Assembly: GCA_026414565.1 (NCBI GenBank)
Contig: JAOAIT010000062.1
Coordinates: 1-37,514 of the forward strand
Length of the DNA stretch: 37,514 bases
DNA from: Verrucomicrobiia bacterium
GTDB taxonomy: Bacteria; Verrucomicrobiota; Verrucomicrobiia; Limisphaerales; Fontisphaeraceae
Direction: 5' to 3'
Shown: positions 2,818 to 10,856 of the stretch, one piece after another
Position numbering within the stretch: position 1 is the stretch's first letter
Layout of the letters: the number at the start of each line of letters is the position of its first letter
The notes under the pieces: generated by a model
Databases searched by the model: none
Seen by the model: the letters and a program-made list of their open reading frames with translations, nothing else
Told to the model about the DNA's origin: nothing
Made by a program: the position numbers and the translations under genes

Positions 2818-4554
2818 CTATTGAATCCATCCCACCCACTGGCCGAAGCGGCAGAGGAGGTAGCCGAGGCCGCCGGAGATGGGGATGGTAAAAATCCACG
2901 CCCAGACCATGCGCTCGACGACGGTCCAGCGGAGGGCGTTGAAGCGCCGGGCGCAACCCACGCCCATGATGGCGGCCGAGATGTTGTGGGTGGTGGAGAC
3001 GGGGATGCCGAGGGTGGTGGCCAGGAAGATCATGGTGGCCGAGCTGGTTTCGGCGGCAAAGCCGTTGATGGGCTGCAGCTTCACCATCTTATGGCCAAGG
3101 GTTTTGATGATGCGCCATCCGCCGGCGGCGGTACCGGCGGCCATGGTGATGGCGCAAACGATTTTAATCCAAAGTTTGATGCCCTCCATGTTGGCGGCCC
3201 GGTGGAAATAGCGGGCGGCCAGGGGCAGATTCTGGGGCACCTCCAGGCCGTGGCGGTGGAGCAGGCCCAGACAATACAGCGCCTCGGGATGCTGGCGCTG
3301 GGCGCTCTGCTCCCACAGGCGGAGGGCCTGGGCGCGATCACGCGGAGCGCCGCCGTGGCCGTCCCAATACCAGGCCGCCAGCACGGCTTGGGCGTCGGCG
3401 TTGTTGCGGGCGGCGCGCTGTTGCAGCCAGGCCAGGGCCGCGGTTTCGTCCGCGGGCTGGCCCTCCAGGCGGCGGCGCGGGAAGACGACTGGCGGCGCCG
3501 GCGGCGGCAGGGTGTTGAGCAGCTCGGCGGCCTTGGCCTCGTCCCGGGGCACGCCCAGGCCTTTTTGGTATAACTCGGCCAGCTTTTCCTGGGCGGGGCG
3601 ATGCTTGAGTTTCACCGCCTGCTCCAGCCATTCGGCGGCGAGGCGGTAATTGACCTCCACGCCGCGGCCTTCCAGGTACAAGAGGGCCAGGTTGTATTGC
3701 GCCTGGGGGTTTTTGTTTTGCGCGGCATGTTTGAAGTCGCGGGCCGCCTGGGGCAGATTCAGCGGCAAGCCCTGGCCGTCCCGGGCCATTTCGCCCAGTT
3801 GATTGTAGGCCTCCTGGATGGCGGGCAGGGACGAGGAGGGATAGTACAGCCAGTTGAGGTAACGCGGCAGGTGGTCAAACGTGCCGGCGGCGGTGGCGGC
3901 CATGAGGGCAAGGGCGATGATGCCCATGGTTTTCTGGGCGTCATTGGTGCCGTGCATGACACCCATGGCGGCGGCGCTCAAGATTTGGGCCTTGCCAAAG
4001 GTGAGGTTGACCAGGCGCGGGGTGAGCCGCAGCAACGAGACCAGGAGGTAAAGGAGGGCCATGATGAGAAACCCCAGGAGGAAACCGCCCAAAGGCGAGC
4101 TGAACATGGGAATGACCACCTTGTAGAGGAGGCCGCCGCTCTTGATCCAGTCGTTGGGATTGGGCTGGGACCAGATGATGGCCTTCCAGTTGTTCTGGGC
4201 GCCGGCGAGCGCCGCGCCACACAGACCGCCAATCAGCGCATGACTGGAGCTGGAGGGCATGCCAAACCACCAGGTGATGAGGTTCCAGGTGATGCCGCCC
4301 AGGAGGGCGCAGACCAGCATTTCGGAGGTGACGGTGACCACCTTGCTGTCAACCAGGCCGGAGGAGATGGTCTTGGCCACCGCCGTGCCGAGCATGGCGC
4401 CGCCCAGGTTGGCCAGGGCAGCCATGATCACCGCCTGCCGCGGGGTGAGCACCTTGGTGGAGACCACGGTGGCAATTGAATTGGCGGTGTCGTGGAAGCC
4501 GTTGATGTACTCGAAAATCAACGCCACCAAGATGACCACAAAAACCAGTTCCAT
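2818..4554 (-). CDS. PiT-family inorganic phosphate transporter with an inserted Sel1-repeat block
   Basis: 578 residues in one uninterrupted frame. Residues 1-228 and 459-578 are a PiT phosphate:cation symporter: the first signature GFHDTANSIATVVSTKVL (19-36), GMPSSSSHALIGG (98-110), the second-half GVMHGTNDAQKTMG (198-211), and PVSTTHNISAAIMGVG (518-533), with hydrophobic segments around each. Residues 229-458, where the cytoplasmic loop of PiT proteins lies, form a soluble Sel1/TPR-like block: AQYNLALLYLEGRGV (285-299), AQEKLAELYQKGLGV (321-335), ADAQAVLAAWYWDGHGG (386-402) and ALYCLGLLHRHGLEV (425-439). Sel1 repeats usually bind proteins. The family is usually shorter, with a plain loop. 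The gene lies 73 bp downstream of the DUF47 gene, and both are likely transcribed from the Pho-box promoter at 5281-5319. Confidence 0.93.
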   Translation of the reverse strand: MELVFVVILVALIFEYINGFHDTANSIATVVSTKVLTPRQAVIMAALANLGGAMLGTAVAKTISSGLVDSKVVTVTSEMLVCALLGGITWNLITWWFGMPSSSSHALIGGLCGAALAGAQNNWKAIIWSQPNPNDWIKSGGLLYKVVIPMFSSPLGGFLLGFLIMALLYLLVSLLRLTPRLVNLTFGKAQILSAAAMGVMHGTNDAQKTMGIIALALMAATAAGTFDHLPRYLNWLYYPSSSLPAIQEAYNQLGEMARDGQGLPLNLPQAARDFKHAAQNKNPQAQYNLALLYLEGRGVEVNYRLAAEWLEQAVKLKHRPAQEKLAELYQKGLGVPRDEAKAAELLNTLPPPAPPVVFPRRRLEGQPADETAALAWLQQRAARNNADAQAVLAAWYWDGHGGAPRDRAQALRLWEQSAQRQHPEALYCLGLLHRHGLEVPQNLPLAARYFHRAANMEGIKLWIKIVCAITMAAGTAAGGWRIIKTLGHKMVKLQPINGFAAETSSATMIFLATTLGIPVSTTHNISAAIMGVGCARRFNALRWTVVERMVWAWIFTIPISGGLGYLLCRFGQWVGWIQ

Positions 4555-6277: not shown

Positions 6278-7567
6278 ATGAGCAACAAACGGCAACTGGG
6301 GTTGGTGTCGGCCACCGCGCTGGTGGTGGCCAACATGATTGGCATGGGCGTGTTCACCACCAGCGGTTATACGCTGGGGGATTTGAAATCGCCGTGGCTG
6401 GTGCTGGCCGCCTGGGCGGTGGGCGGCGTGATTGCGGCCATGGGGGCGCTTTGCTATGCCGCTCTGGCGCGGCGCATTCCGGAGTCGGGCGGCGAGTACC
6501 TGTTCCTTTCGCGGACGTTGCATCCGGCGGCGGGCTACGTGGCGGGCTGGATATCCCTGCTGGTGGGTTTCTCGGCCCCGCTGGCGGCGGTGGCCTATGG
6601 ATTTGGCGAGTATGCCAAAACGTGGTATCCCGGCTGGGACGCGCAGACGGTGGGGGCCGTGTTGATCATTCTGTTTGCGGCCCTGCATGCGGCCGATGTG
6701 AAACATGGGGCGTGGGTGCAAAACGCCACGGTCATCCTAAAAATCATCCTGATCCTGGGCTTCATCGGGTGGGGGTTTGCCCATCTGCCGGAGCCCCGGC
6801 CGTATGCGCCGCCCAAGTTTCCGCTGGGGCTTTTTGCGGTATGTCTGGTCTGGATTTCCTTTTCCTATTCGGGCTGGAATGCGGTCATTTACATTGGGGG
6901 TGAAGTCAAGGACGGGGAACGGATCCTGCCGCGCGCCATGTTGTTGGGCACGGGGATTGTGACGGTGTTGTATTTATTGCTCAACGCGGTGTTTGTGTTT
7001 GCCGCGCCCATGGAGCAGTTGCAATACCAGGTGGCCATTGGCTGGGTGGCGGCCCGGGCGCTGGGGGGGGATTTATGGGCCAATTTCATCACGGCGCTGG
7101 TCTCTCTGGCACTGATCAGCTCGGCTTCCTCCCTGCTCATGGTGGGGCCGCGCGTCTATGCCAAAATGGCCGAGGACGGCTGGCTGCCGCGCTGGCTGGC
7201 GGCCGAGAGCGGGCCGCCGCGGCGGGCCATAGGTTTGCAGGCGGTGCTGGCGTTGTTCCTGTTGTGGCACACCGAGTTTCAAAACCTGATGAATTACATC
7301 GGATTTACCCTGCTCTTGAGCACCACCGCGACGGTGCTGGGGCTGATCCGGCTGCGTCTCCGGGAAGGGGCCGCCGTGCGGGTGGTGGGCTGGCCGTGGC
7401 TGCCGTTTTTGTATCTGGGGGTGGTGTATGCCATGGCGTTGTTCAACGTGCAGCTTCGCCCCACCCAAAGCCTGTACGGGCTGGGCACCATCTTCCTGGG
7501 CGTGGTGGCCTGGTGGCTCACGGCGCGTTATCGCCGCCGCCCGCCCGCCACCCGCGCCGTTACCTGA
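6278..7567 (+). CDS. APC superfamily amino acid/polyamine permease
   Basis: 429 residues, about 12 hydrophobic segments. The start [20 protein letters not shown] followed by [11 protein letters not shown] is the first transmembrane helix of the amino acid-polyamine-organocation family with its unwound Gly-rich substrate motif. [21 protein letters not shown]-like sequence (here [13 protein letters not shown]) after TM2 is also typical. I chose ATG 6278 over ATG 6257 because the family begins just before TM1 and a purine-rich GAGGGACGAGAG stretch precedes it. It imports or exchanges a small amine or amino acid across the inner membrane; specificity cannot be told. Its last 8 bp overlap the convergent pseudopilin gene. 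Confidence 0.92.
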
Positions 7568-8294
7568 GCCGCAAGACCGCCGGCCGGAGCCGTCCCACCC
7601 GGTGCTCCGGCAACAAGGGGTCCAGCGAGCCGGGCTCGGGACGCTCGCTGCCGACGTGGCCGTCACAGAACACGGCGCTGGCGGTTTGCTCGTGGCGGAA
7701 ATGGGCCGTGCGCTCGGTGGTGTTGGTGCTCACGTAATAAAACTCCTCCAGCATCGGATTGTCGGGCGAGGCCGGCGGCTGAAAGGTGTTGATTTGGGCG
7801 GCATCGGCCAGCAACACCGTTTCCGCCGCCGACTTCAGTTGATACACGTTCACAGGCGGGGCGGAGGGCGGAGCGGACAGGCACAGGTTGTAGCCATAGC
7901 CGTAGGCCGCGCCGGTGGCCTTGAGCTTGAACGAAGCCAGGCTGTAATCCAGGGCGGGACACAACTCCACCCCCCGCCCCAGCAAATACGGATAAAGCGC
8001 CCCCAGCTCCGGGCGAAAAGCGCGCTGGCCTTCCGCGCCGTTTTCCATCCAGCCAAACCAGTACAGGCGGCCGCCGTTGGTGGCCGTGCCGCCATAGCGG
8101 AAGGTCTGGCCCTGATAATCATCCCAATACATCTGGGCGGCCAGGCCCATCTGGCGCAGGTTGCTGAAGCACCGCACCCGCTGCGCCGCCCGCTGGCTGC
8201 GGCCCAGCGCCGGCAGGAGCAGGGCCAGGAGCACGGCCAGAATGGCCACCACCACCAGCAGCTCCACCAGCGTGAATGCGCAGCGTCGCTTCAT
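7560..8294 (-). CDS. Pseudopilin-like protein (type IV pilin N-terminal methylation motif), fourth gene of the B12-riboswitch operon
   Basis: 244 residues. The N-terminus [20 protein letters not shown] is a type III signal peptide: a short basic leader, cleavage before Phe, Glu at mature position 5, then a long hydrophobic helix. The following region [20 protein letters not shown] and the C-terminal [18 protein letters not shown] resemble the pseudopilin-like proteins (GspG/H type, prepilin-type cleavage) that are numerous in Verrucomicrobia and Planctomycetes. Such proteins are processed by a prepilin peptidase and act at the envelope; their roles are mostly unknown. It starts 3 bp after the stop of the LamG-like gene. 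The last residues overlap the 3' end of the APC permease gene on the other strand. Confidence 0.9.
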
Positions 8295-8297
8295 GAC

Positions 8298-9329
8298 CTA
8301 GGGGCGCGTAATGGCAATGCGGTAAAATCGTTGCGGCGGCGTCTCCGGTTCGAGCGGCCATTCCAGCCATCCCCCGGTGCCCGCCATCGGCTCATGGAGC
8401 GGGGTCCATTGCCGCCAGTCCGCCGTGGCCTCCACCACAAAACGATACCCGGCCGCCCCCAGATAACGCACCGCCCGCCCGTTTGCGGTGCGGACGGCCT
8501 GCAGTCCCTGCACCGGCGGCTCCGGGACGGTCCAAATCACGTTGTCCACGTACCCCCGCGCGTAAAGCGAGCCGCCCGCGCCGGCATCGCTGTAACTGGC
8601 CACGGCAAAGGTGTCCACGCGGTAATCGGTAAAGGAGCCGGTGAGCTGCGAGGTGAATTGCGCCAGCAGGCTGCCCTCCTCCCCCGTCACAAAGGGCGTG
8701 GCGCTGGCGCGCAACGTGGTGGTCAGTTGCCGGGTGGCGGCCTGATAGCTCATGCGCACGCGCAGCCAGGTCTGGGTGGGCAGCGTGATTTCACGATAGG
8801 CATTGGGCCCGTCGTAATTGAACTGGCCATTGGTGCTGGTGAACGTTGGCCAGACTGTGGCCTGATGGCTGTAGAGATCCTGGGGATGATAGTACTCGGG
8901 GAAATAATCGAATTCGATCAGGTTGGGCGCGTAACCCACGCCGCGGCCGCGCTGGAAGGAGTCCCGCACGGCCTGCACGGAGTTGTGAAAGCCCAGCGCC
9001 ACTTCAAACGAATACGGTTTGTCTGGATTCACCCCAATCCGCGCCTCCAGCAGGTACAGGTCAAACCCCAGCGTGAACGAGTCCGTTTTGGCCAGAATCA
9101 CGCCCAGGGGACGCCGGAAGTAGGAGTTGCTCCGGCTGGAATCCCACGTCACCGCCAGCCATTGGCGCGCGGCGTCCCACTCGAAAAGCGAAGCCTGGCC
9201 GTGCACCTGCCAGCCGCGCCGGGCCGGGTCGGTGGAGAAATCTTCCGTGAACGTGGCCGCAGCCGCGGCGCCGGCCGCCGTGACCAGCGCCAGGCCGAGC
9301 CACCTTTGAATGAGGTGTTTTGCCGTCAT
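8298..9329 (-). CDS. Secreted LamG/concanavalin-like protein, third gene of the B12-riboswitch operon
   Basis: 343 residues. The N-terminus MTAKHLIQRWLGLALVTAAG plus a run of Ala is a signal peptide. The mature start FTEDFSTDPARRGWQVHG, then WLAVTWDSSRSNSYFRRPLG and DSFTLGFDLYLLEARIG, looks like a jelly-roll concanavalin/LamG-type domain (to about residue 245). A small C-terminal beta domain (RFVVEATADWRQWTPLHEP) resembles the add-on beta modules common in Verrucomicrobia secreted proteins. No PEP-CTERM anchor is seen. Its ATG overlaps the stop of the CWC gene (ATGA). I do not recognise a named family; a ligand- or glycan-binding surface role is inferred from fold and context. The start at 9329 was preferred over upstream codons because it begins the signal peptide. 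Confidence 0.85.
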   Translation of the reverse strand: MTAKHLIQRWLGLALVTAAGAAAAATFTEDFSTDPARRGWQVHGQASLFEWDAARQWLAVTWDSSRSNSYFRRPLGVILAKTDSFTLGFDLYLLEARIGVNPDKPYSFEVALGFHNSVQAVRDSFQRGRGVGYAPNLIEFDYFPEYYHPQDLYSHQATVWPTFTSTNGQFNYDGPNAYREITLPTQTWLRVRMSYQAATRQLTTTLRASATPFVTGEEGSLLAQFTSQLTGSFTDYRVDTFAVASYSDAGAGGSLYARGYVDNVIWTVPEPPVQGLQAVRTANGRAVRYLGAAGYRFVVEATADWRQWTPLHEPMAGTGGWLEWPLEPETPPQRFYRIAITRP

Positions 9330-9586
9330 GCGCCGTTGTCTTTCACGGCCTCCCACGGAGTAAGGGAAGGGCCATCGTCCCACACGCGCCGGGTCAGGCA
9401 CGCGCGGCACAGGCACACCTTTTGCCGCAGGGCGGCGGGCACGCGCGCCAGCGCCTCCGGCGCGGCGCGCACGCCCCAACACCAGCAGGGGTCCCCCACC
9501 TCACCACCGGCGGCCACCACACAATCATTGGGCTGCCCGCACAACGGGCAGGCGCCCGGGTCTATGACGCCGGGATGAGCCTTCAT
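9326..9586 (-). CDS. Cysteine-rich CWC family protein, second gene of the B12-riboswitch operon
   Basis: 86 residues, no signal peptide. Cysteines are arranged as CPLCGQPNDC, then CWCWG, then CLCRAC, matching the cysteine-rich CWC family, small proteins presumed to bind metal through two Cys clusters. Function is unknown. The ATG overlaps the stop of the PEP-CTERM gene (ATGA, 9586-9583), and its own TGA overlaps the ATG of the next gene (9329-9326), so it is translationally coupled on both sides. Being locked inside a cobalamin-controlled operon suggests a role in handling cobalt or corrinoid, or the thiol chemistry of a surface protein; that is inference only. An upstream start at 9619 exists but would lie inside the previous gene. 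Confidence 0.88.
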   Translation of the reverse strand: MKAHPGVIDPGACPLCGQPNDCVVAAGGEVGDPCWCWGVRAAPEALARVPAALRQKVCLCRACLTRRVWDDGPSLTPWEAVKDNGA

Positions 9587-10419
9587 GGCCTGGCGCTGTT
9601 GCGCTGACGCCGCACCCACGCCAGCAAGCCCACCCCCGCCAGCCCCAGCAGCCAGGTGGCCGGCTCGGGCACCGCCGCCAGGGCGTCCAGTTTGATTTGG
9701 CCCTCCAGCACGCTGAGCCGCACGTAATGGATTTCCTGCAGGGACACCGGTTGTCCCTGGGCGTCAATGGCCCAGCCCAGGTCATAGCCCACCCCGCCCG
9801 CCGAGCCGCCATACAAGGCCCGGATCTCCGGCAGGGTTTTGCCGGCAAAAGCCGCCGGGGTTAGCGCCGGATTGGGCGGCAGGCCAAACTGTCCGGCGGA
9901 ATCGGTTGGCAGGGCGGCCTCGGTCACCGGCGCCAGCGAGGGGTTGAGCAGGTAAAAGTTCTGGCCGTCCGCGCTGACCGAGATGCGCGTCACTCCGCCC
10001 AGGTTGCCAAACACCGTGCCATCGGAGAGGCCGTTGGGCCAGTTCACATCCACCAAGGCCGCCCCGCCATACACCACGAAATCCAGGCCGTAGGGGTGGG
10101 CGGGAAGATTGCGGACCGGCTCGGCAAAACGGAGCGTGAGCGAGCCGCCGGCGCCGATGCCGACGAGTTGATCCGAGGTGTAGGGCGCTTCAAAGGGGGT
10201 GATGGGGGTCGGCTCGGGGGACCACGGCGGGAAGGCGGGGTTGAAGGTGGCGGGCATGCCCAGGGCGGCGGCGGCATTGGTGTAGCTGGATAGCGAGCCG
10301 CTTAATGCGCCTGGTTGATAATCCACCACACTGGAGGCGTAGGCGGCGGCGTGAAGGGTTGCCCAACTCGAAACCATTACGCTGGCCAGGGCCAGCCCGG
10401 CGGTCATCCATCGTTTCAT
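9583..10419 (-). CDS. PEP-CTERM surface protein under cobalamin riboswitch control
   Basis: 278 residues. MKRWMTAGLALASVMVSS begins a signal peptide cleaved near HAAAYA. The C-terminus is a PEP-CTERM sorting signal: VPEPATW, a hydrophobic helix LLGLAGVGLLAW, then VRRQRNSARP. Exosortase would process it and deliver it to the cell surface. The body contains GAGGSLTLRFAEPVRN, YGLDFVVYGGA, ISVSADGQNFYLL and GVGYDLGWAIDAQGQPV, then IHYVRLSVLEGQIKLDALAAV. From memory this order (a strand capping an edge, a 'D-F-x-V-Y/F-G' strand, 'D-x-x-W-A-V/I-D', 'I-x-x-V-R') matches cell-surface proteins found beside BtuB/BtuG in Bacteroidetes B12-uptake loci; a profile search is needed. ATG 10419 follows AAGGTGA at a suitable distance. 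It is the first gene of the operon. Confidence 0.9.
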   Translation of the reverse strand: MKRWMTAGLALASVMVSSWATLHAAAYASSVVDYQPGALSGSLSSYTNAAAALGMPATFNPAFPPWSPEPTPITPFEAPYTSDQLVGIGAGGSLTLRFAEPVRNLPAHPYGLDFVVYGGAALVDVNWPNGLSDGTVFGNLGGVTRISVSADGQNFYLLNPSLAPVTEAALPTDSAGQFGLPPNPALTPAAFAGKTLPEIRALYGGSAGGVGYDLGWAIDAQGQPVSLQEIHYVRLSVLEGQIKLDALAAVPEPATWLLGLAGVGLLAWVRRQRNSARP

Positions 10420-10496
10420 GAACTTGCAGTCACCTTCGCTCCGGCTCAAACGGAGCTGCTGTTGTTTGTTGCCGGCCAGGGGGAGCATGAAGGCAC

Positions 10497-10533
10497 AAAA
10501 AAACCTTCATCCTCCGCCACACGGGAATGAAGG
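10497..10533 (-). terminator. Intrinsic terminator between riboswitch aptamer and first gene (expression platform)
   Basis: On the minus strand CCTTCATTCC (10533-10524) pairs with the later GGATGAAGG (10512-10504), about 9 bp with one G-U pair, and is followed by seven T (10503-10497). It lies between the aptamer and the ATG at 10419. A competing 8-bp pairing is possible between TTCTCCGC (10598-10591) and GCGGAGGA (10517-10510), which overlaps the 3' arm and could act as antiterminator. Confidence 0.8.
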
Positions 10534-10620
10534 CTTTCCACAGGTCCAGTTCCGAAACGGCGAAACCGGCTGGCCTCATCCTTCTCTTGAGCGGAGAAGT
10601 TGGGTCGTCAACCCGACGAG

Positions 10621-10767
10621 CGCAGCCTGACCGGTATCCTGACTTCGGGCCTCAAACCTCGCTCCCGCCTTCCCGCCCATGGAGAGCAGTGGCCGTGGGA
10701 GTTTGTAACCCGTTACAGTGGCGCTACCGTCCCTGATTCTCACAGGGTTCCCTGTCATCCGGCTGCG
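10621..10767 (-). promoter_or_regulatory. Cobalamin (vitamin B12) riboswitch aptamer
   Basis: Read on the minus strand, the aptamer starts with CGCAGCC (10767-10761), which pairs with GGCTGCG (10627-10621) as P1. Then come CAGGGAACCCTGTGAGAATC, CAGGGACGGTAGC and GCCACTGTAACGGG, the conserved junction pieces of B12 riboswitches (GGGAA, GTG-AATC, C-G-AC, GCCACTG). The B12 box is AAGTCAGGATACCGGTCAGG near 10646-10627. All elements are in the right order and spacing, so the call rests on sequence alone with little doubt. It leads the four-gene operon 10419-7560; with the terminator at 10497-10533, cobalamin is expected to turn the operon off. Confidence 0.94.
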
Positions 10768-10827
10768 TTGAGGGCCATGCTTTTCCCGGCGGGAAAGCGC
10801 ACGGCCTGTTTGAAAGAACCGGGCTCA

Positions 10828-10856
10828 TTCATAAGCTTTGACCTCCGCCCCGGCAA
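10828..10856 (-). promoter_or_regulatory. Candidate sigma-70 promoter of the riboswitch operon
   Basis: Minus-strand TTGCCG (10856-10851) and TATGAA (10833-10828) are separated by exactly 17 bp. Transcription would start near 10821, about 55 nt before the aptamer, giving a leader of about 400 nt. Each hexamer matches consensus at 4 of 6 positions. Confidence 0.45.

What the first reader, a model, noticed from the sequence alone, without database searches (positions are those of the whole stretch)
7560..10856. A cobalamin-riboswitch operon with no B12 genes: PEP-CTERM, CWC, LamG-like and pseudopilin-like proteins
The sequence shows a B12 aptamer, an intrinsic terminator and four genes joined by ATGA overlaps or a 3-bp gap, all on the minus strand. 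B12 riboswitches normally control uptake (BtuB, BtuFCD), synthesis, or B12-independent isozymes. Here the controlled genes encode a surface-anchored protein, a Cys-rich metal-binding-like protein, a secreted jelly-roll protein and a pseudopilin-like protein. The simplest reading is a B12-starvation-induced cell-surface system, perhaps capturing or relaying corrinoids at the envelope of a B12 auxotroph.
Basis: partly seen in the sequence, partly recalled or inferred. Interest (0 to 1): 0.9.

Follow-up and report, generated by a model that had tools for sequence, protein, structure and literature searches.

The report
Vitamin B12-switched surface capture operon
A vitamin B12-sensing RNA switch controls a small set of cell-surface genes whose first protein resembles a known B12-catching protein of gut bacteria and whose last is a pilus-like protein, which suggests a so far undescribed way for these bacteria to scavenge B12.

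Summary
In detail: a cobalamin aptamer (RF00174, 76.6 bits), a terminator-like hairpin and four tightly packed minus-strand genes. "No B12 genes" does not hold: gene 1 (PEP-CTERM) has a BtuH-type domain. In its predicted fold (pLDDT 92) the best PDB entries are the BtuG1 H-domain (Z 14.2) and B12-binding BtuH2 (13.5), next 9.4. Operons of this kind lie under a B12 riboswitch in 46 of 58 genomes of the order, but 16 of them have only genes 3 and 4 there, without gene 1. Eight other genomes have a TonB receptor at the switch; none has both. Ten of the 46 show no TonB plug protein. Outside the order, 11 of 11 fetched loci have a pilin of the gene-4 type behind the first gene; in two the first gene carries DUF4465, a proven B12-binding domain. 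The host has MetH and methylmalonyl-CoA mutase but no CbiC. Best reading: a B12-controlled surface system that captures corrinoids and stands where sister lineages have a TonB receptor. What the pilin does, and whether it replaces TonB-dependent uptake, is inferred; B12 binding and regulation were not tested. I found no description of it in the open-access papers searched.

The parts
10612..10794 (-). Cobalamin riboswitch aptamer RF00174, full length
   Evidence: Infernal 76.6 bits, E 2.4e-17; only RF00174 match found in the genome
10497..10538 (-). Terminator-like hairpin and U7 run between aptamer and gene 1
   Evidence: RNA fold of 10490-10611, z -2.36; sequence; not listed by the simple scan
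9583..10419 (-). P1: 278 aa, signal peptide-like N terminus, BtuH-like domain, PEP-CTERM tail (the open frame extends to ATG 10488)
   Evidence: PF07589; AlphaFold pLDDT 92.1; PDB matches
9664..10347 (-). BtuH-like domain of P1 (model residues 25-252)
   Evidence: VIA-align Z 14.2 to BtuG1 H-domain, Z 13.5 to BtuH2
9601..9675 (-). PEP-CTERM sorting signal of P1
   Evidence: PF07589, residues 272-296 of the 301-aa frame
9326..9586 (-). P2: 86-aa Cys_rich_CWC protein (domain 9395-9550)
   Evidence: PF14375 51 bits; count in the order
8298..9329 (-). P3: secreted 343-aa protein, legume-lectin-like sandwich (residues 22-271) plus a small C-terminal beta domain
   Evidence: AlphaFold pLDDT 90.9; Z 15.8 to legume lectins; C-terminal domain shared with L183
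7560..8294 (-). P4: 244-aa pseudopilin-like protein, N_methyl plus DUF1559-type
   Evidence: PF07963, PF07596; conserved family A1, set apart from other pilins by score

Best explanation
The operon is a B12-controlled corrinoid-scavenging system of the cell surface. Shown: a cobalamin aptamer with a terminator-like hairpin precedes the genes, and P1 carries a domain related to the B12-binding domain of BtuH2 and BtuG1. Inferred: when B12 is scarce the aptamer is empty, the terminator does not form and the genes are transcribed. P1, held at the surface by its PEP-CTERM tail (exosortase), binds corrinoid. P3, a secreted lectin-like protein, holds P1 or the cell to glycan or is itself a second binder; since 16 of 46 such operons have P3 without P1, the two may stand in for each other. 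P4, the most constant gene behind the switch, is a dedicated pseudopilin of the machine that brings the binders to the surface or carries captured corrinoid towards the periplasm. The operon stands where sister lineages have a TonB receptor at the riboswitch. P2 (CWC) probably handles corrinoid or cobalt inside the cell.
For: Aptamer. P1: a profile of 20 relatives hits 8blw_B (E 3.1e-6) and 7biz_A (0.022); one of 44 hits them at 4.9e-6 and 0.0063, in collinear segments; Foldseek's top three chains in the PDB copy are 8blw_B, 7biz_A and 7biz_B; Z 14.2 and 13.5 stand above the next, 9.4. These are BtuG1 with its BtuH domain and BtuH2 with B12 (PMC10404256 passages; PMC8941943 section 8). Recurrence: 46 of 65 RF00174 places in the order lead into P1 and/or P3, 42 of the 46 with P4; 62 of 64 scanned P4 loci have RF00174 and 5 more RF01482. 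No high-scoring P4 in 8 of 8 receptor-type genomes against 40 of 50 others, Fisher p 2.3e-5, kinship not corrected. DUF4465 in the first gene of two distant operons. The host has MetH and MCM; CbiC absent in 58 of 58.
Against: No binding or expression data. P1 is absent at the switch in 16 of 46 operon places, which have P3 and P4 or P3 only (16 P3+P4 and one P3 alone, G055's second place); whether those genomes have P1 elsewhere was not searched. Identity of P1 to the BtuG1 H-domain is 20% over 157 residues, and the sandwich fold is common; the window's P1 has Gly where 30 of 44 relatives have Asn, at the place I align by eye with BtuH2 Asn399. A profile of 14 long or distant P1-type proteins hit nothing in the PDB at E 1 or less, nor did one of them give BtuH. 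No transporter in the operon; a strong FecCD (BtuC family) match exists in only 4 of 58 genomes, so the inner-membrane step is unknown. 36 of 46 operon genomes have some TonB plug protein, and I classified only the two of the window's genome, so BtuB elsewhere is not excluded. Exclusivity at the switch is partly trivial, as 44 of 54 genomes have one RF00174 only. P4 was not folded. Three orphan P4 genes lack riboswitch and partners.
Confidence: 0.76

Rival explanations
1. B12 is used as a cue for a surface or adhesion programme: low B12 means 'away from producers', and the operon makes an attachment layer that does not itself bind corrinoid.
For: P3 has a lectin-like fold, P1 a PEP-CTERM tail and P4 a pilin N terminus; no known B12 transporter in the operon; 16 of 46 places lack the BtuH-like P1 but keep P3 and P4.
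Against: P1's nearest solved structures are B12-binding domains; two distant operons carry DUF4465; P4 is not found at high score in the genomes with a TonB receptor at the switch.
Confidence: 0.15
2. P1 and P3 are accessory corrinoid capturers for a TonB receptor encoded elsewhere; P4 serves only their export. Uptake itself is ordinary and TonB-dependent. (This overlaps with the best explanation and rivals its replacement part.)
For: In Bacteroides, BtuH works beside BtuBG (PMC10404256 passages and PMC8941943 section 9); 36 of 46 operon genomes have some plug protein.
Against: 10 of 46 operon genomes have no plug match, 5 of them at 91-97% completeness; the two receptors of the window's genome match the TOL_0244 and Xanth-Caul models better than the BtuB models, all below cut-off. 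The excess of plug-less genomes over receptor-type genomes is not significant (10 of 46 against 0 of 8, p 0.33).
Confidence: 0.4
3. The riboswitch association is an accident of ancestry and the genes have an unrelated function.
For: All loci come from related genomes, mostly MAGs; gene order alone proves no function.
Against: Two aptamer classes hold the same place; the link persists outside the order; P1 resembles BtuH.
Confidence: 0.05

Closest known systems
BtuH2 and BtuG1 H-domain of Bacteroides thetaiotaomicron (7BIZ, 8BLW)
   Same: Domain fold and weak sequence similarity; B12-riboswitch loci; cell surface
   Different: There PKD or beta-propeller proteins, mostly beside BtuB; here a PEP-CTERM protein with lectin-like and pilin partners and no receptor in the operon
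DUF4465 / BtuJ family (9FCT, 9I2L, 9HMU)
   Same: Secreted or surface B12-binding proteins, shown also for D5EK51 of Coraliomargarita; DUF4465 heads two distant operons of this kind
   Different: No match in P1-P4 nor in 58 genomes of the order
BtuB-type TonB receptor under a cobalamin riboswitch
   Same: Same riboswitch family in sister lineages of the order
   Different: No receptor or transporter in this operon
DUF1559-type pseudopilins
   Same: N_methyl signal and DUF1559 match
   Different: A conserved subfamily, 41 matches of 291 bits or more in 58 genomes, 36 of them behind RF00174 and one behind RF01482

Membership tests
Cobalamin riboswitch RF00174 | Covariance-model score over the gathering score | tested here: met
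   76.6 against 31.5 bits
Cobalamin riboswitch RF00174 | Binds cobalamin and changes expression | not testable with these tools
   Needs in-line probing or a reporter
BtuH B12-binding domain (P1) | Sequence and fold similarity to BtuH2 and BtuG1 H-domain, above other sandwiches | tested here: met
BtuH B12-binding domain (P1) | B12-contact residues (in BtuH2: Gln333, Asn399, Phe401, His476, Tyr510, Trp511, Trp577, Leu578; PMC8941943) | tested here: inconclusive
   Only the Asn399 place could be aligned, by eye from the segment: Asn in 30 of 44, Gly in the window
BtuH B12-binding domain (P1) | Binds B12 | not testable with these tools
   Needs protein
BtuB-containing B12 uptake locus | TonB receptor in the operon | tested here: not met
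DUF4465 (BtuJ) | PF14717 match | tested here: not met
   No match in P1-P4 at E 10; 0 of 58 genomes
Type IV pilin-like / DUF1559 pseudopilin (P4) | N_methyl signal and DUF1559 domain over cut-offs | tested here: met
   31.8/21.2 and 25.3/23.3 bits
Type IV pilin-like / DUF1559 pseudopilin (P4) | H-X9-DG model TIGR04294 | tested here: inconclusive
   14.5 bits, below the cut-off of 19
PEP-CTERM protein (P1) | C-terminal PEP-CTERM signal | tested here: met
   31.9/20.7; TIGR02595 16.7/16
PEP-CTERM protein (P1) | Exosortase in the genome | not tested
L-type lectin fold (P3) | Concanavalin-like sandwich | tested here: met
   Z 15.8 over 203 residues, 3.3 A
L-type lectin fold (P3) | Sugar- and metal-binding residues | not tested
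   No residue comparison was made
Cys_rich_CWC (P2) | PF14375 over cut-off | tested here: met
   51/24 bits

The most novel reading that the evidence does not exclude
P4 is the mobile part of a TonB-independent outer-membrane import route: a B12-controlled pseudopilus that takes corrinoid from the surface binder (BtuH-like P1, lectin-like P3 or DUF4465) and draws it through the envelope, replacing a TonB receptor in much of the order and in other Verrucomicrobiota.
Probability: 0.3. Interest if true: 0.93.

Novelty: new variant of a known kind. Interest (0 to 1): 0.77.

Why it matters
B12 is a contested micronutrient, and in Gram-negative bacteria its passage through the outer membrane is known through TonB-dependent BtuB (established knowledge). 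Here an order of B12 users, mostly known from MAGs, has a B12 switch before surface proteins and a pseudopilin, and several genomes show no TonB plug protein. If right, it extends BtuH-type capture to a phylum where the papers searched do not describe it, gives a B12-linked hypothesis for four poorly known protein families (PEP-CTERM P1, lectin-like P3, DUF1559-type P4, CWC), and makes a direct test possible of whether a pilus-like machine can import a vitamin.

Tried and rejected
Rejected: that the riboswitch is a chance match (recurrence). That the downstream neighbour belongs to the system: it is an amino-acid permease in the window and in G001, and a phosphomannomutase in the two others scanned, G009 and G015. 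That P3 is a DUF4465 protein: no Pfam match, and the profile comparison with the DUF4465 protein L183 aligned only the small C-terminal domain. DUF4465 structures were not among the 50 rows, which decides nothing.

Led nowhere: the terminator scan; PDB searches with P3 profiles, best E 0.22; a long P1 protein and a profile of 14 long or distant ones against the PDB; a plasmid search for P1, no match, and one for the receptor L185, which gave other TonB receptors at under 60% identity; paper searches, none of whose listings showed such an operon (open-access PMC only; of these papers I read only passages of PMC12530212). One search gave the BtuH, BtuG and DUF4465 papers; the DUF4465 papers again.

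Rows dropped: of the 80 P4 loci, ten have under 430 bases before the first gene (L096, L097, L100, L114, L120, L127, L150, L160, L165, L168; none has an aptamer) and L103 is a copy of L102; 69 remain, of which 67 have a B12 aptamer and L149 and L159 (a broken P3 fragment before P4) do not. At least 19 of the 69 are the same records as in the 58-genome set, by equal contig length. The 50 genomes were chosen from the P4 loci, so its 47 of 50 is no independent count.

Full report
What is there. The window lies in a 4.3-Mb, 71-contig genome, 97% complete. One cobalamin aptamer (RF00174) lies at 10794-10612 on the minus strand, 76.6 bits, the only one found in the genome. Behind it come a hairpin with U7 (not listed by the simple scan) and four genes with ATGA, ATGA and 3-bp junctions. 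P1 is a PEP-CTERM protein, P2 a Cys_rich_CWC protein, P3 a secreted protein of no named family, P4 a pilin-like DUF1559 protein. The ATG at 10488 follows the U run by 8 bases, so ATG 10419 is the likelier start (sequence).

Is it more than chance? In 58 genomes of the order, own genome included, from 56 families, 54 have RF00174, 65 places in all. I took the DNA behind all 65 and scored it. 46 places lead into P1 and/or P3: 18 with P1, P3 and P4, 8 with P1 and P4, 16 with P3 and P4, and 4 without P4 (G018 and G045 end after 1.7 and 1.3 kb; G028; the second place of G055). 9 lead into a TonB receptor, in 8 genomes (8 by the profile; the ninth, G049:C98, has a plug match and matches only the BtuB model). 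9 lead into nrd genes (NrdA shown for G050), the classic B12-independent isozyme target. One (G054:C147) leads into BluB (281 bits, cut-off 150). G003, which lacks RF00174, has RF01482 (AdoCbl, another B12 aptamer class) before a P1-P3 fusion and P4. So 46 of 58 genomes have such an operon under a B12 aptamer, 30 of them with P1 there.

A scan of public genomes with the P4 profile alone gave 288 relatives, of which the best 80 were kept. Of the 69 with upstream DNA, 62 have RF00174 and 5 RF01482 at the same place; L149 and L159 have none. At least 19 of the 69 are the same records as in the first set. By local profiles the 68 loci other than L159 hold P1+P3+P4 (38), P3+P4 (22), P1+P4 (5) or P4 alone (3: of these L139 and L140 have the aptamer directly before P4, L149 does not). 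P4 is therefore the most constant gene. In the 58 genomes 41 P4 matches score 291 bits or more and the next 110: 36 behind RF00174, one behind RF01482 (G003), one on a contig of its own next to a CWC gene (G018, probably the cut-off end of its operon), and three orphans (G017, G028, one of two in G055). Six further riboswitch-linked P4 genes are divergent, 81-118 bits, and are not set apart from other pilins by score.

What P1 is. No curated family covers it apart from its tail. A profile of 20 relatives has two PDB matches below E 0.1: 8blw_B (3.1e-6) and 7biz_A (0.022); with 44 relatives 4.9e-6 and 0.0063, in collinear segments. The AlphaFold model (pLDDT 92.1) has 8blw_B, 7biz_A and 7biz_B as its three best Foldseek matches among 350,542 chains; VIA-align gives Z 14.2 (157 residues, 3.6 A, 20% identity) and 13.5 (152 residues, 3.2 A), then 9.4. 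7BIZ is BtuH2 with B12; 8BLW chain B is BtuG1, whose C-terminal 250 residues are homologous to BtuH2 (PMC8941943 section 8; PMC10404256 passages). So P1 is a BtuH-domain relative with a PEP-CTERM tail; 18 of 20 full-length relatives fit a lenient pattern for such a tail. Whether the pocket is kept is open: the residue that I align by eye with BtuH2 Asn399 is Asn in 30 of 44 relatives but Gly in the window.

Outside the order. In a sample of 145 genomes of the phylum, 16 besides our own have a P1-type match; 11 of the 16 have an RF00174 match upstream on the same contig and strand within 2 kb (one, G214, at 30.6 bits, just under the gathering score), among them 8 of the 9 over 40 bits. I fetched those 11: in 11 of 11 a pilin of the P4 type (58-124 bits) is the next gene. 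In G217 and G163 the first gene carries DUF4465 (E 8.8e-51 and 1.9e-52). In G163 a P1-like segment follows the DUF4465 domain and a P3-type C-terminal domain ends the protein; its DUF4465 part matches solved DUF4465 structures (9qpm, 9fct, 9hmu, 9i2l). Eight DUF4465 proteins, among them D5EK51 of Coraliomargarita, bind B12 (PMC13398666 abstract and first part of the Results; I also read its sections on genome context and discussion). This ties the riboswitch-binder-pilin arrangement to B12 capture by a second domain.

Physiology. The genome has MetH (1983.6 bits, cut-off 1497) and methylmalonyl-CoA mutase (1310.7, cut-off 876). CbiC, a step of corrin synthesis, is found in 0 of 58 genomes, while it rings in 7 of 14 control genomes. 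This is one marker gene, not a pathway survey. A strong FecCD (BtuC family) match, over 260 bits, occurs in 4 of 58, all operon genomes, so how B12 crosses the inner membrane is unknown.

Relation to TonB receptors. The 46 operon genomes and the 8 with a receptor at the switch do not overlap (Fisher p 2.6e-7). This is partly trivial, as 44 of 54 genomes have a single RF00174; but none of the 10 with more than one combines the two, and P4 of 291 bits or more is found genome-wide in 0 of the 8 against 40 of the other 50 (p 2.3e-5; kinship not corrected). Ten operon genomes have no plug-domain match, five of them 91-97% complete. This suggests replacement but does not prove it: 36 operon genomes have some TonB receptor, and I examined only the two of the window's genome, which match other receptor models better than BtuB.

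P3 and P2. P3's model (pLDDT 90.9) is a legume-lectin-like sandwich (Z 15.8). CWC genes are not common in the order (23 matches in 22 of 58 genomes), yet 16 of 23 lie behind a B12 riboswitch on the same strand within 6.6 kb, by the coordinates: 11 in P1/P3/P4 loci, 4 behind a TonB receptor, 1 in an nrd locus; a 17th (G018) is next to P4. CWC is thus B12-linked whatever the uptake type, which fits an intracellular role (inference).

How it most likely works. B12 falls, the aptamer empties, transcription runs on (inferred from the anatomy). P1 goes to the surface and binds corrinoid (inferred from homology). P3 can stand in for P1, so it may bind corrinoid too (inferred). P4 serves display or transfer (inferred). 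Mean pairwise identity is 55% for P4, 49% for P1 and 41% for P3, on row sets that differ, which fits a P4 that touches a shared machine or the shared ligand.

Novelty. Paper searches (open-access PMC only, seen as listings except the papers named above, PMC12751083 in abstract and PMC12530212 in passages) showed no description of BtuH in Verrucomicrobiota or of a B12-riboswitch pilin operon. BtuH-type capture under a B12 riboswitch is a known kind; the PEP-CTERM, lectin and pilin setting without a receptor is a new variant. A pilus-like import route, if real, would be categorically new.

Noticed in passing
window 9395-9550 and the loci: Cys_rich_CWC (PF14375) genes: 16 of 23 in 58 genomes lie behind a B12 riboswitch, also behind TonB receptors and once in an nrd locus, so this family of unknown function looks linked to B12 in general.
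   Followed up: partly
58 genomes of the order: Only 4 of 58 genomes show a strong FecCD (BtuC family) match; the inner-membrane B12 importer of the rest is not known.
   Followed up: partly
L152, L167, L169, L171, L172, L190: Here the RF00174 aptamer before the operon is replaced by an RF01482 (AdoCbl) aptamer at the same place; L190 and L167 are the same contig by length.
   Followed up: yes
L139:4451-5705, L140:4612-5708: P4 is the first gene behind the aptamer, with no P1 or P3 match: a pilin alone under a B12 riboswitch.
   Followed up: no
window 2818-4554 (-): A PHO4 phosphate transporter match over residues 18-563 of 578 with Sel1 repeats inside it, an unusual insertion.
   Followed up: no
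L182:4693-7266 (-), L183:6040-7653 (-): DUF4465 proteins heading a B12-riboswitch and pilin operon, with a P1-like segment in the same chain in L183.
   Followed up: partly
L191, L192, L193: Orphan P4-family pilins without a riboswitch or P1/P3 partner in the 7 kb fetched.
   Followed up: partly
L069:3892-4770 (-): A cobalamin riboswitch before BluB (lower-ligand synthesis) in an incomplete genome, G054, that also has the P1/P3/P4 operon.
   Followed up: partly
L124:4608-4794: Two Acido-Lenti-1 RNA matches on opposite strands between P3 and P4 of this operon.
   Followed up: no
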